The notes below the pieces were generated by a model, which worked only from the letters and a program-made list of their open reading frames with translations, was not told the DNA's origin and did no database searches. Shown here in pieces: positions 20,670-61,469 of a DNA stretch of 64,000 bases. Origin of the DNA: Baekduia alba (GTDB lineage Bacteria; Actinomycetota; Thermoleophilia; Solirubrobacterales; Solirubrobacteraceae). Position 1 is the stretch's first letter, and the number at the start of each line of letters is the position of its first letter. Made by a program: the position numbers and the translations under genes. The stretch lies in assembly GCF_028416635.1 (NCBI RefSeq), contig NZ_CP114013.1, positions 3,348,001-3,412,000 of the forward strand. Direction: 5' to 3'.

Positions 20670-21068
20670 GTGGCCGGCCGTTCGTCGCAGGAGCGCGCCG
20701 CGCTGACGTCCGCCAAGGCGCGGCTCGACCGCCTGGACCTCTACCCGCGGCCGGTGCGGCTGCGACCCACGGTGCGGATCCTCAGCACGCCGTGGCTGTT
20801 CCGGCTGCCGTGGTTCTCGCGCTTCGACGGCTACACGATGTGGGACCTCGTCCTGCTGCGCGCGCCGCTGGCGCGGGCGTCGGCGGACCTCGTCTGCCAC
20901 GAGCTGTGCCACGTCTGGCAGATGCAGCACAAGCCGCTCGCGATGCCGCTGAGCTACCTCTACCGCGGCTACGCCTCCAACCCGTATGAGTTGGAGGCGC
21001 GCCGCGCGGTAGAGGTGACTGCGGAAGCCTCGCCCAGCGGCTCGGTTTCCGGGCGCGAGCTCGCCTAG
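20670..21068 (+). CDS. small HExxH putative metallopeptidase-like protein
   Basis: A 132-aa protein from GTG 20670, 6 nt after the previous gene. The centre contains HELCHVWQMQ, an HExxH zinc motif, and 25-30 residues later NPYELEARR, which could supply a glutamate third ligand as in gluzincin-like small proteins. No signal peptide. The last 14 residues (EASPSGSVSGRELA) are encoded by the hairpin repeat at 21022-21082 and are probably not part of the fold. As third gene behind the FtsH-like protease it may belong to the same proteolytic system. Catalytic activity is not shown by sequence alone. Confidence 0.7.
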   Translation: MAGRSSQERAALTSAKARLDRLDLYPRPVRLRPTVRILSTPWLFRLPWFSRFDGYTMWDLVLLRAPLARASADLVCHELCHVWQMQHKPLAMPLSYLYRGYASNPYELEARRAVEVTAEASPSGSVSGRELA

Positions 21069-21082
21069 CGGCTCGCTCGCAC
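21022..21082 (+). repeat. hairpin repeat family, two copies (locus A)
   Basis: Copy A1: arm CGGAAGCC (21022-21029), apex TCGCCCAGCGGCTC, arm GGTTTCCG (21044-21051). Copy A2: arm GCGCGAGC (21053-21060), apex TCGCCTAGCGGCTC, arm GCTCGCAC (21075-21082). The apices are nearly the same, whereas the arms differ between copies yet remain complementary. The A2 apex contains the TAG stop of the upstream gene. Confidence 0.8.
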
Positions 21083-21098
21083 GCTGGTGGGATCCTTC

Positions 21099-22850: not shown

Positions 22851-24629
22851 TTGGCCATCTTCCGCAGACTCCTCGGCTTCCTGGCGCCCTACCGGCGCGG
22901 CGTCGTGCTGTCCGGGTTGCTGGCCGGTGCGGCGATGATCATGACCGTGCTGATCCCGTGGCTCACGGGCAGCGCGATCGACCACATCCGCAGCGGCGAC
23001 TCCAGCGACCTCAATCGCATCGGCATCCTGATCGGCCTCGCCGGCCTGGCCCGGCTCCTGCTGACCGTCGGGCGCCGCTTGGTCGCCGGCCGCGTGTCGC
23101 TCGGCGTCGAGTACGACCTGCGCCAGCGGCTGTACTCGCACCTGCTCTCGCTCGAGCTCGGCTTCTTCGACCGCCAGCAGACCGGCCAGCTGATGTCGCG
23201 CGCGACCGTCGACCTCGCGGCCGTCCGGTTCTTCCTCGGCTACGGCCTCGTCTTCATCATGCAGGCGGGGCTGACGATCGTGCTCGCCGCGATCGCGATG
23301 CTGCTCGTCGACCCGCTGCTGGCCGTGATCTCGCTCGCGCCGGTGCCGTTCGTGGTGCTGATCGCCTCGCGCTACGGGCGCCGGGCGCGCCCCGCCCAGC
23401 AGGCCGTGCAGCAGCGGATCGCGGAGCTGACCGCCGACGCCGAGGAGTCGATCGGCGGCGTGCGCGTCGTGAAGGCCTTCGCGCGCGAGGACCGCCAGCT
23501 CGAGCGCTTCGCCGGCTCCACCGCGCGCGTCTTCGACCAGGAGATGATCGCGACCCGGCTGTCGGCCTACTACCAGCCGCTGATCGGCTTCCTCCCCCAG
23601 ATCGGCCTCGCCTGCGTGCTGCTGATCGGCGGGCGCCGCGTCATCGCCGGGAACATGACGCTCGGCGACTTCACCGCGTTCTACGCCTACCTGCTGATGC
23701 TGCTGATCCCGATGCGCCAGCTCGGGATGACGCTGGGCCTGGCCCAGCGCGCGACCGCCTCGGGCGCGCGGCTGTTCCAGATCCTCGATCGCGAGCCGGC
23801 GATCACGGCGCCGCCGGACGCCGAGCCGCTGCCCGCGGGCAACGGCCACGTCGAGCTGCGTGGCGTCTCGTTCGCCTACGAGAGCGCCCAGGGCCCGTCG
23901 CTGCGCGACGTCTCGCTCGACGTCCCGGCCGGGACGACCGTCGCGCTGGTCGGCGCGACCGGCTCGGGCAAGACGACGCTCGTCCAGCTGCTGGGCCGCC
24001 TGTACGACGTCGACGCGGGCGCGATCCTGATCGATGGCGCGGACGTGCGCGACGTCGACCCGGTGCAGCTGCACCACGCGCTGGCGGTCGTCGACGACGC
24101 GCCGTTCCTCTTCTCCACCACCATCGCCGACAACATCGCCTACGCGCGCGGCGGCGCCGACGCCGTGGCGCGCGAGGACATCGAGCTGGCCGCGCGGCGC
24201 GCGCAGGCCGACGGCTTCATCAGCGCGCTGCCCGACGGCTACGACACCCGCGTCGGCGAGCGCGGGCTCACGCTCTCCGGCGGCCAGCGCCAGCGCGTCG
24301 CGATCGCCCGCGCGCTGCTGGCCGACCCGCGGATCCTGGTCCTCGACGACGCCACCTCGGCGGTCGACGCCTCGACCGAGCAGCAGATCAAGGAGGCGCT
24401 GCGCGAGGTGATGGCCGGGCGCACGACGTTCGTCATCGCCCACCGCCTGTCGACGATCGCGCTGGCCGACGTCATCGTCGTCGTCGAGGACGGCGAGATC
24501 GTCGCGCAGGGCACGCACGACGAGCTGCTCGAGGTCTCAGCGCTCTACGCCGAGATCGTGGAGAAGGGCCTCCCCGACCAGGTCTTCCTCAACCAGAACG
24601 ACCCCGAGCGCGAGGTGGCGGGCCTGTGA
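22851..24629 (+). CDS. ABC exporter half-transporter with degenerate catalytic site
   Basis: A 592-aa TMD-NBD fusion starting at TTG 22851. Six transmembrane helices span residues about 15-310. The NBD has Walker [10 protein letters not shown] (about 368-376), signature LSGGQRQR, Walker [12 protein letters not shown] and H-loop AHRLS. The residue after the Walker B Asp is Asp500, where the catalytic Glu is expected. This is the hallmark of the inactive-site subunit of heterodimeric exporters such as TM287/288 or BmrCD. The partner gene follows at 24682. Predicted role: export of lipids or drugs. Confidence 0.93.
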
Positions 24630-24667
24630 GCGCGGGAGCCTCGCCCAGAGGGCTCGCTCGCGCGCTC
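24628..24667 (+). repeat. hairpin repeat family (locus B)
   Basis: Arm GAGCGCGGGAGC (24628-24639), apex CTCGCCCAGAGGGCTC, arm GCTCGCGCGCTC (24656-24667); 11 of 12 arm positions pair. It starts in the stop codon of the first ABC gene and ends 14 nt before the second, so it lies inside the operon mRNA. Confidence 0.8.
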
Positions 24668-39121: not shown

Positions 39122-40180
39122 CACCTCGAGCCCGAGGTAGTCGGGGAAGGCGACGGGCGCGACGTAGCGGGCGGCGCTGGCGATCATCGCGGCGTTGTCG
39201 GTGCACAGCGCGCGCGGCGGGATCTTGACGGTCGGCGCCAGCGCGCTCAGGCGCTCGCGGAGCGGGCCGTTGGCGGCGACGCCGCCGCCGATCGCGAGGC
39301 GGTCCAGGCCGGTGTCGCGCAGCGCGCGCTGCACGCGCTGGGCGAGCTGCTCGACGATCGCGCGCTGGTAGGCCGCGGCGAGGTCGGCGCGGCGCGCCTG
39401 CGCCTCGGCCTCGCCCAGGTCGCGGACCTTGTAGAGCAGCGCGGTCTTCAGGCCGGCGAACGAGAAGTCCAGGCCGGTGAGGTTCTTGGAGGTCGGGAAG
39501 GCGTAGGCCTCGGGGTCGCCGTCGCGCGCGAGCTTCTCCAGGTGCGGGCCGCCGGGGAACGGCAGGCCGAGCAGGCGGGCGCCCTTGTCGATGGCCTCGC
39601 CGGCCGCGTCGTCGAGCGTCTGACCGAGCACGGTGAAGCCGGCGTGGTCGTCGACGCGGGCCAGGAACGTGTGACCGCCGCTGGCGATCAGGCACAGGAA
39701 CGGCGGCTCGAGCGGCTCCGCGCCGTCGGTGTGGAGGAAGTTCGCCGCGACGTGGCCCTGCAGGTGGTCGACCGGCGCGAGCGGGATCTGGCGGCTCGCC
39801 GCGATGCCCTTGGCGGTCGCGACGCCGACGAGCAGCGCGCCGACCAGGCCGGGGCCCGCGGTGACCGCGACGAGGTCGACGTCGTCGAGCGTCGCGCCGG
39901 CCTGGCGCAGCGCGTCGTCGACGACCGGCGTGGCCAGCTCCAGGTGATGGCGCGACGCGACCTCGGGCACGACGCCGCCGTAGCGGTCGTGCACGCCCTG
40001 GGAGGAGATGACGTTGGCGCAGATCTCGCCGTCGCCGGTGACGACCGCGGCGCAGGTGTCGTCGCAGGACGTCTCGATCGCGAGGATGACGGAGCCTCGC
40101 CCTGCGGGCTCGTCCCGGGGCGGCTGCTCGCCCGGAGGGCTCGCCTCCGCGACCCGGGGCGGGAGAGCGCGATCGCTCAT
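39095..40180 (-). CDS. tsaD: tRNA N6-adenosine threonylcarbamoyltransferase TsaD
   Basis: A 361-aa enzyme that transfers threonylcarbamoyl to A37 of ANN-decoding tRNAs with TsaB and TsaE. Motifs: VILAIETSCDDTC at residue 31, the metal-binding HLQGH, SGGHT, GLPFPGGPHLEKLA, AIGGGVAANG and CTDNAAMIA (third ligand Asp). The catalytic part normally starts at residue 1-3, but here about 28 extra residues (EASPPGEQPPRDEPAGRG region) are encoded by two hairpin repeats. No alternative start exists between them and the core, so the extension is translated. Start ATG 40180 overlaps the rimI stop. Confidence 0.96.
   Translation of the reverse strand: MSDRALPPRVAEASPPGEQPPRDEPAGRGSVILAIETSCDDTCAAVVTGDGEICANVISSQGVHDRYGGVVPEVASRHHLELATPVVDDALRQAGATLDDVDLVAVTAGPGLVGALLVGVATAKGIAASRQIPLAPVDHLQGHVAANFLHTDGAEPLEPPFLCLIASGGHTFLARVDDHAGFTVLGQTLDDAAGEAIDKGARLLGLPFPGGPHLEKLARDGDPEAYAFPTSKNLTGLDFSFAGLKTALLYKVRDLGEAEAQARRADLAAAYQRAIVEQLAQRVQRALRDTGLDRLAIGGGVAANGPLRERLSALAPTVKIPPRALCTDNAAMIASAARYVAPVAFPDYLGLEVHATGQRAL
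40090..40150 (-). repeat. hairpin repeat family, two copies inside tsaD 5' end (locus C)
   Basis: C1: arm CGGAGC (40090-40095), apex CTCGCCCTGCGGGCTC, arm GTCCCG (40112-40117). C2: arm GCGGCTGC (40120-40127), apex TCGCCCGGAGGGCTC, arm GCCTCCGC (40143-40150), six of eight pairs. Given in plus-strand letters. Both lie within the translated N-terminal extension of TsaD. Confidence 0.72.
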
Positions 40181-41389: not shown

Positions 41390-41892
41390 GGCGAAGCCTC
41401 GCCCTGCGGGCTCGTCTCGCTTGCGGTGCTTGCCTGGGGGCTGGCACGCGCAGGCCTCGTGACCGTGATCGTCCGGGTGTCGCCGCCGGCGTGCGCCAGC
41501 GTCACCTTCGCGGCGATGCGCTCCAGCTGCGGCTCGGCGATCTCCGGCCACTCGACGAACGCGATCGCGTCCGGCGTCAGGTAGTCGTCGAGTAGCGCAG
41601 GATCCTCGTCGGCGAGGCCGCCGAGGCGGTGCAGGTCGAGGTGGGCGATCGGGGCGCGGCCGGGGTGGGTGGGCTCGTATCGGCGTCCGATCGTGAACGT
41701 CGGGCTCGTGACCGGCCCGTCGAAGCCGAGCGCGCGGGCGGCGCCGCGCACGAACGTCGTCTTCCCCGCCCCCATCTCGCCCTCCAGCAGGACGACGTCA
41801 CCCGGCGCCAGCGTCGCCGCCAGCGCGGCGCCCGCGGCCTCGGTCTCGGCCGCGCTCGCTGTCGTCGCCCGGGTGTCGCTAGAACCGCTCAG
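41386..41892 (-). CDS. tsaE: tRNA threonylcarbamoyladenosine biosynthesis ATPase TsaE, unusual start
   Basis: A P-loop protein: LAPGDVVLLEGEMGAGKTTF (Walker A), TSPTFTIGRRY, HLDLHRLGG and AFVEWPEIAE, all TsaE signatures. The conserved frame clearly continues upstream of the only in-frame ATG, which is in Walker A itself (41775). No ATG, GTG or TTG precedes it there. A CTG at 41892 would give MSGSSDTRATTASAAETEAA, close to normal length (about 168 aa), overlapping the LPxTG gene end by 14 nt. The last 21 residues (after TITVTRP) are a non-conserved tail encoded partly by a hairpin repeat. TsaE drives the TsaD-TsaB cycle. Confidence 0.85.
   Translation of the reverse strand: MSGSSDTRATTASAAETEAAGAALAATLAPGDVVLLEGEMGAGKTTFVRGAARALGFDGPVTSPTFTIGRRYEPTHPGRAPIAHLDLHRLGGLADEDPALLDDYLTPDAIAFVEWPEIAEPQLERIAAKVTLAHAGGDTRTITVTRPARASPQASTASETSPQGEASP
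41390..41421 (-). repeat. hairpin repeat family at tsaE-tsaB junction (locus D)
   Basis: In plus-strand letters: arm GGCGAAGC (41390-41397), apex CTCGCCCTGCGGGCTC, arm GTCTCGCT (41414-41421), seven of eight positions pairing with two wobbles. The apex is identical to copy C1. It encodes the last residues of TsaE. Confidence 0.72.
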
Positions 41893-55057: not shown

Positions 55058-55061
55058 GCGC

Positions 55062-55121
55062 GGAAGGCCTCGCCCAGGGGCTCGGCTTCCGGGCGGGAAC
55101 TCGCCAGGGGCTCGTTCCCGC
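55062..55121 (+). repeat. hairpin repeat family, two copies (locus E)
   Basis: E1: arm GGAAGGCC (55062-55069, one bulged G), apex TCGCCCAGGGGCTC, arm GGCTTCC (55084-55090). E2: arm GCGGGAAC (55093-55100), apex TCGCCAGGGGCTC, arm GTTCCCGC (55114-55121), all eight pairs perfect. The copies fill the spacer between map and the ABC ATPase gene. Confidence 0.82.
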
Positions 55122-55139
55122 GGCCCTGGCAGCGCCGAC

Positions 55140-61433: not shown

Positions 61434-61469
61434 CACGGAACCCGAGCCCTCCGGGCGAGCGGTTCCGCG
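61434..61469 (-). repeat. hairpin repeat family (locus F)
   Basis: On the minus strand: arm CGCGGAACC, apex GCTCGCCCGGAGGGCTCG, arm GGTTCCGTG; all nine positions pair, one as a wobble. The core matches copy C2. It lies between the GT4 stop (61471, upstream gene) and the GT2 start. Confidence 0.82.

What the first reader, a model, noticed from the sequence alone, without database searches (positions are those of the whole stretch)
21022..21082. Dispersed hairpin family with a conserved apex and covarying stems
Eight copies occur at six loci: 21022-21051, 21053-21082, 24628-24667, 40090-40117, 40120-40150, 41390-41421, 55062-55090, 55093-55121 and, in the other orientation, 61434-61469 (the last group counts nine hairpins if every tandem unit is counted separately). 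All share the core CTCGCCCnGnGGGCTCG. The flanking arms differ from copy to copy but stay complementary (for example CGGAAGCC/GGTTTCCG, GCGGGAAC/GTTCCCGC, CGCGGAACC/GGTTCCGTG). Compensatory change argues for selection on structure, in RNA or single-stranded DNA, not just copying. All lie at gene junctions, mostly inside operons, sometimes in tandem pairs. I know no named element with this pattern.
Basis: seen in the sequence. Interest (0 to 1): 0.78.

Follow-up and report, generated by a model that had tools for sequence, protein, structure and literature searches.

The report
Mobile double-hairpin repeat at gene junctions
The window carries a family of tiny (about 70 bp) two-hairpin DNA repeats that have been inserted between tightly packed genes, keep a fixed mismatch near the hairpin tip while the stem arms change in matching pairs, and appear to be an undescribed bacterial miniature mobile element whose moving enzyme is unknown.

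Summary
The hairpins are real and far above chance (7 strict copies in the window, 0.03 per simulated sequence). The listed 'core' is exact in only 5 of 9; the constant part is C-TC-G/C-TC-G, a 2x2 internal loop (TC/TC, or tandem GA/GA on the other strand) below a short apical stem. Arms covary: 118 double-change cells against at most 59 with arms swapped between copies (61 elements). The real unit is a direct tandem of two hairpins, about 70 bp; single ones look like deletions between them. They are insertions: related genomes have empty sites, usually 4-nt overlapping stop/start (ATGA/GTGA) junctions, and filled sites keep the stop on the left and a start on the right, sometimes with an 8-19 bp direct repeat. 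Near-identical copies sit at unrelated loci. Both orientations relative to genes occur (18:13) and G.T pairs are no commoner than other mismatches, so structure is kept in DNA rather than RNA. Distribution is patchy: Solirubrobacterales plus a Nitriliruptorales MAG. No Rfam match; RAYT and reverse transcriptase do not track copy number. Best reading: a non-autonomous, REP-like, ssDNA-recognised double-hairpin element of a new lineage; the enzyme, and whether selection or template switching maintains the arms, remain open.

The parts
21020..21091 (+). double-hairpin element between convergent genes: hairpin 1 at 21022-21051, hairpin 2 at 21053-21082, conserved tail to about 21091
   Evidence: hairpin 2: 50.5 bits, E 1.1e-9; filled in G004 with different but complementary hairpin-1 arms, empty in G006
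24628..24667 (+). single hairpin between two ABC transporter genes; looks like a hybrid of hairpin-1 left arm and hairpin-2 right arm left by deletion between the two cores
   Evidence: (25.1 bits); absent from all five same-genus genomes compared
40090..40150 (+). double-hairpin element lying antisense and in frame inside the 5' end of tsaD (adds about 31 residues before the conserved ILAIET start)
   Evidence: empty in G006, G001, G005; filled in G003; TIGR03723 begins at residue 32
41390..41456 (+). hairpin 1 (41390-41421) plus degenerate hairpin 2 (41418-41456) at the tsaE/tsaB junction, antisense; tsaE frame reads through it
   Evidence: (empty in G006, G001, G005)
55060..55130 (+). double-hairpin element between an M24 peptidase gene and an ABC ATPase gene: hairpins 55062-55090 and 55093-55121 plus tail
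   Evidence: G004 empty: GTGA overlap; G003 has a deletion hybrid; E 1.6e-8
   Evidence: (hairpin 2: 31.1 bits, E 5.7e-5)

Best explanation
These are copies of a non-autonomous mobile DNA element of about 70 bp made of two directly repeated hairpins (arm1-CTCG-apex-CTCG-arm1', short linker, arm2-CTCGCC-YRGN-GGCTCG-arm2', tail GCGGCC). Shown: the structure, the arm covariation, presence/absence at orthologous sites, dispersal of near-identical copies to unrelated loci, and the gene-junction position. Inferred: a host or element enzyme recognises the folded single strand, most likely the GA strand, where C-GA-G/C-GA-G can stack as tandem sheared G.A pairs, by the fixed internal loop and apical loop rather than by arm sequence. 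It inserts at tight stop/start junctions, duplicating the ATGA/GTGA overlap so that both neighbouring genes survive. Arm complementarity is then maintained because only folding hairpins are mobilised, helped by template-switch copying of one arm from the other. The enzyme is unknown.
For: Two-hairpin unit in 12 genomes. Covariation: 24 of 53 core-selected hairpins with at least 7/8 arm pairs against 5.3, max 12, when swapped; covariation score 0.430 against 0.117 shuffled and at most 0.125 for slid registers. Insertion: empty sites at five window loci and six further loci. At 8 of 10 co-directional sites my reading of the alignments gives a 4-nt overlapping junction when empty, against 31% of co-directional junctions overlapping in the own genome (p 0.002). 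Flank direct repeats: CGTGGTGAACG, GCATCAGGCGG, TCATGCCG; permutation p 0.0015 in the best of the flank windows tried. Recent movement: copies 95-99% alike with unrelated flanks in G063 and G064. DNA level: 18 same against 13 opposite (p 0.47); G.T share of non-Watson-Crick cells 0.143 against 0.168 when swapped. Intergenic: 31 of 38 in 9% of sequence. Functional precedent: the E. coli REP stem mismatch is required by TnpA-REP (PMC8266576).
Against: No mobilising gene found. Flanking repeats are clear in a minority of copies, vary in length (8-19 bp), and the permutation test gives only p 0.03-0.2 in the other left-versus-tail window choices, so duplication is suggestive, not shown. Loss from an ancestral filled state was not excluded site by site, although empties usually outnumber filled copies. 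Gene starts come from a home-made caller. TC/TC conservation is partly built in, since copies were found by CTCG; Watson-Crick versions of hairpin 1 exist (5 of the partners found next to hairpin 2). G.A stacking is inference.
Confidence: 0.68

Rival explanations
1. An RNA element: a transcribed hairpin pair acting as terminator, processing site or protein-binding site in operon mRNAs, spread or kept by selection on RNA structure.
For: Covarying stems; location at gene junctions, mostly between co-directional genes; stable RNA folds.
Against: Orientation relative to genes is near random (18:13), including antisense insertion twice in the tsa operon; G.T/G.U cells are no commoner than other mismatches; no Rfam match; absent at most orthologous junctions of same-genus genomes.
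Confidence: 0.12
2. Neutral copies whose arms stay complementary only because DNA polymerase template switching repeatedly copies one arm from the other; no recognition of or selection on structure.
For: Template switching is known to homogenise inverted-repeat arms and create paired changes (PMC8794818, PMC8604942). At 21022 the left arm of G004 differs through a deletion and its right arm differs in a way that keeps 6 of 7 pairs. Some hairpin-1 copies have the TC/TC loop turned into Watson-Crick pairs.
Against: The TC/TC mismatch should be the first thing corrected, yet it stays in most copies; the apical loop is also conserved. Copies continue to spread, which needs recognition of something shared.
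Confidence: 0.12
3. A REP/BIME of the RAYT (TnpA-REP) system.
For: Small dispersed imperfect palindromes at gene junctions with a conserved stem mismatch, as in E. coli REPs (PMC8266576); one Y1_Tnp gene in the own genome.
Against: No GTAG or CGTC tag in the consensus; hairpins are in direct, not alternating, orientation; copy-rich G001, G003, G027 and G036 have no Y1_Tnp match, and G005 has three with no copies; none of the 20 Y1_Tnp loci held is flanked by a significant hairpin match.
Confidence: 0.08

Closest known systems
REP / BIME / REPIN sequences with RAYT transposases
   Same: 20-40 nt imperfect hairpins, dispersed at gene junctions, sometimes inside genes; conserved stem mismatch; thought to be mobilised as folded single-stranded DNA (PMC8266576, PMC3733652)
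   Different: no GTAG/CGTC tag; direct tandem instead of alternating orientation; arms fully variable with paired changes; no RAYT association; preference for overlapping stop/start junctions
Mitochondrial double-hairpin elements (Allomyces DHEs; repetitive hairpin-forming elements of sponges)
   Same: tandem of two hairpins, mobile, patchily distributed, movement enzyme unknown (as reviewed in PMC2800124)
   Different: mitochondrial, no reported sequence relation; no flanking duplication reported in Allomyces; the original DHE paper is not held here, so stem covariation could not be compared
Rickettsia palindromic elements and other in-frame insertable repeats
   Same: palindromic repeats that can sit in frame inside protein genes, as in the N-terminus of TsaD here
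   Different: different sequence and size; mostly junctional here; comparison rests on general knowledge and PMC3733652 only
Integron attC sites (mechanistic analogue only)
   Same: folded single-strand site recognised by unpaired features (named as analogue in PMC8266576)
   Different: no cassette genes seen, integron integrase association not tested; recalled likeness, not a test

Membership tests
REP/BIME with RAYT | short imperfect palindrome, dispersed, mostly extragenic | tested here: met
REP/BIME with RAYT | conserved unpaired GTAG or CGTC tag at the foot of the hairpin | tested here: not met
   alignments A4 and A5 and the flank information profile show none
REP/BIME with RAYT | cognate RAYT (Y1_Tnp) in the genome, often flanked by the repeats | tested here: not met
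   absent in several copy-rich genomes, present in a copy-free one; 20 Y1_Tnp loci without significant hairpin match
REP/BIME with RAYT | neighbouring units in alternating orientation | tested here: not met
   the two hairpins are direct repeats about 31 bp apart
Mitochondrial-type double-hairpin element | two adjacent hairpins as mobile unit | tested here: met
   presence/absence
Mitochondrial-type double-hairpin element | common descent with fungal or sponge elements | not tested
   no sequence of those elements compared
Structured cis-regulatory RNA | fixed strand relative to the regulated gene and tolerance of G.U pairs | tested here: not met
   18:13 orientation; G.T share not raised
Known Rfam family | score above a family's gathering threshold | tested here: not met
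MITE of a DDE transposon | terminal inverted repeats and fixed-length target duplication | tested here: inconclusive
   no clear terminal inverted repeats seen; flanking repeats 8-19 bp, significant only in aggregate

The most novel reading that the evidence does not exclude
A bacterial miniature element whose integration machinery reads a folded single strand by one fixed internal loop and builds its first stem partly from the target: in one class the left arm is the host's own ...CATGA stop/start junction, paired by an element-borne CATG.. arm, and insertion duplicates the junction so that both genes remain intact. That would be a new integration chemistry with pairing-guided target choice at overlapping gene junctions.
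Probability: 0.15. Interest if true: 0.85.

Novelty: new variant of a known kind. Interest (0 to 1): 0.6.

Why it matters
Small palindromic repeats that move without a known enzyme are a long-standing puzzle (CGTC REPs, mitochondrial double hairpins). This family offers a defined two-hairpin unit, a covariance model, tens of copies per genome, named cultured hosts (Conexibacter arvalis, Paraconexibacter antarcticus, Solirubrobacter phytolaccae) and filled/empty site pairs, so recognition, target choice and the cause of stem covariation become testable. It also shows that strong stem covariation with little G.T can mark a DNA element, a caution for covariation-based RNA discovery.

Tried and rejected
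RAYT/IS200-type mobiliser: no association. Group II intron or other reverse transcriptase as mobiliser: RVT_1 has no match in copy-rich G001 and G003 (G003 only 68% complete) and occurs in copy-free genomes. Phage origin: no match to the double-core pattern in viral contigs. Rfam: none at gathering; only chance-level hits at E above 1. Idea that arm1' is always an inverted copy of the target: fits 19301 (CGACATG/CATGTCG) and many CATGA-class copies, but in G064 arm1' is constant and does not follow host differences, so rejected as a general rule. The first flank-duplication test, which cut off the ATGA, was not significant; the repaired test gave p 0.0015 in its best window and weaker values in others. 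Hits of the double-core pattern in planctomycete, Glycomyces, Brachybacterium and similar records were inspected and mostly lack the arms, so they were not counted. One over-long query and one malformed reference failed.

Full report
WHAT IS THERE. The exact 17-mer core is in 5 of 9. With a criterion of core plus arms the window has 7 copies against 0.03 expected. The window is G000:C1:3348001-3412000 of a 5.86 Mb genome; the window is 73% GC. Same-genus genomes G003 and G004 correspond to MAGs labelled Conexibacter sp. (RYN_258, RYN_248, identified by matching hit lists), so the host lies in the Conexibacter/Solirubrobacterales area.

ANATOMY. Each hairpin is: variable outer stem of 6-8 bp, closing C-G, a 2x2 internal loop TC/TC (GA/GA on the opposite strand), apical stem (GCC/GGC most often, also CGC/GCG and GGCC/GGCC), and a 3-4 nt loop of YRGN type. 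The unit is two such hairpins in direct tandem, cores about 31 bp apart, with a conserved tail GCGGCC to about +16 after the second core and no conserved sequence before the first arm. Single copies at 24628 and, in G003, at 55062 look like deletions between the two cores. Some loci carry tandem arrays of whole units with 77-89 bp period.

COVARIATION. For hairpins chosen by core alone in the own genome, 24 of 53 have at least 7 of 8 arm pairs (one bulge allowed); swapping arms between copies gives 5.3, at most 12.2. For 61 two-hairpin elements from 12 genomes, hairpin 2 has 118 double-change cells against a maximum of 59 in 1000 swaps; hairpin 1 has 125 against 93. The tool's own count on 52 hairpin-2 copies gives a covariation score of 0.430 against 0.117 shuffled and at most 0.125 in slid registers. 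The apical-stem covariation of hairpin 1 is biased, because pairing there was a selection criterion. G.T makes up 0.143 of non-Watson-Crick cells, no more than after swapping (0.168): arms behave as Watson-Crick-only, as expected for DNA pairing. None of these controls removes relatedness among copies; R-scape with a tree was not run.

INSERTION. At window 24628, 40090, 41390 and 55062, at 21022 (G006), and at six more loci of the genome, same-genus genomes have sites without the element. At 55062, G004 reads ACCGCGTGAGCCCCCGCGCGCTC, with stop and start overlapping in GTGA; the window has the stop left and a GTGACG start right of the element. By my reading of these alignments, 8 of 10 co-directional sites are such overlaps when empty, while 31% of the genome's co-directional junctions overlap (p 0.002). 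Direct repeats flank several copies: CGTGGTGAACG (3511741), GCATCAGGCGG (2959823), TCATGCCG (1539922), GGAGGAGGTGCGATGAGCG/GGAGGAGGCACGATGAGCG (G065) and CTGGAAGGAGCGGCATGA/CTGGAGGGAGCAGCATGA (G064). In aggregate p is 0.0015 in one window choice and 0.03-0.2 in the other left-versus-tail windows tried, so target duplication is suggestive. Copies 95-99% alike at loci with unrelated flanks in G063 and G064 show recent dispersal.

CONTEXT. Of 38 elements in 1.49 Mb, 31 lie in called intergenic DNA, which is 9% of the sequence; of those with assignable orientation 18 run with and 13 against the genes (the tally of 17:8 covers the strictly intergenic ones, the rest I assigned by hand). In the tsaE-tsaB-rimI-tsaD operon two elements sit antisense; one lies in frame at the start of tsaD and adds about 31 residues. 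This argues against an RNA element with a fixed strand.

DISTRIBUTION. R1 hits (E up to 0.01): own 36, G001 15, G003 33, G004 10, G006 5, G005 0 in the genus; G027 25, G036 8, G017 7 in the family, most others 0-4; Solirubrobacter phytolaccae 34, a Conexibacter MAG (RYN_242) 47, Paraconexibacter antarcticus 15, a Nitriliruptorales MAG 12. In 396 Actinomycetota genomes only the own genome, that Nitriliruptorales MAG (inferred from identical contig positions) and one single weak match score at E up to 1e-4 with strict filters. Patchy occurrence within a genus fits a mobile element; the outlying MAG may mean transfer or a chimaeric bin.

MECHANISM. Most likely a folded single strand is recognised by the fixed internal loop, as the E. 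coli REP stem mismatch is by TnpA-REP (PMC8266576). The GA strand is the better candidate, because C-GA-G/C-GA-G can form tandem sheared G.A pairs (general knowledge, not tested here). Arm sequence is then free to drift as long as it pairs. Template switching (PMC8794818, PMC8604942) can supply paired changes. In the CATGA class the left arm contains the upstream gene's stop codon and pairs with an element-borne CATG.. arm, which may reflect target choice by pairing. The enzyme is not RAYT or reverse transcriptase by profile; G003 and G004 are incomplete genomes, so single absences there are weak, while G027 (99% complete, 25 copies) and G001 (95%, 15 copies) without Y1_Tnp are stronger.

VERDICT. 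A genuine, apparently undescribed family of double-hairpin miniature elements: a new variant of the REP-like kind, not a member of REP/RAYT by the features tested. 'Undescribed' rests on Rfam and on the open-access literature searched, not on an exhaustive search.

Noticed in passing
window 40090-40150, 41390-41456: Two insertions, in separate junctions and both antisense, in the tsaE-tsaB-rimI-tsaD operon; one extends TsaD by about 31 N-terminal residues and one is read through by tsaE.
   Followed up: partly
L398 (G003), junction orthologous to genome position 3511741: A different insertion of about 30 bp between 19-bp direct repeats (GCGGAGCTGCTGACGTGGT) at the same junction where the own genome and G001 carry the double hairpin; another mobile or slippage event at the same spot.
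   Followed up: no
L344, L345, L350, L351 (Conexibacter arvalis): A subclass of hairpin 1 with another internal loop (TGC or CGC opposite TT) and long arms that include the host GTGA or ATGAG junction.
   Followed up: no
L244 and L254 (RYN_263, RYN_252): Both carry a further inverted repeat, TTGGCAGTCTCTTCACGAGAGTGCCAGG, just upstream of the double hairpin, perhaps another dispersed repeat.
   Followed up: no
L229, L233, L236, L264, L267, L269 (Planctomycetales MAG clean336), L261: Unrelated dispersed repeat with hairpin CGGGAGG-CTCGC-CCTCCCG and unit GGCTCGCCGGGAGGCTCGCCCTCCCG.
   Followed up: no
own genome G000:C1:1466926-1467258 (L160): A lone Y1_Tnp (RAYT-like) gene with no hairpin of this family nearby; its own REPs, if any, were not sought.
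   Followed up: partly
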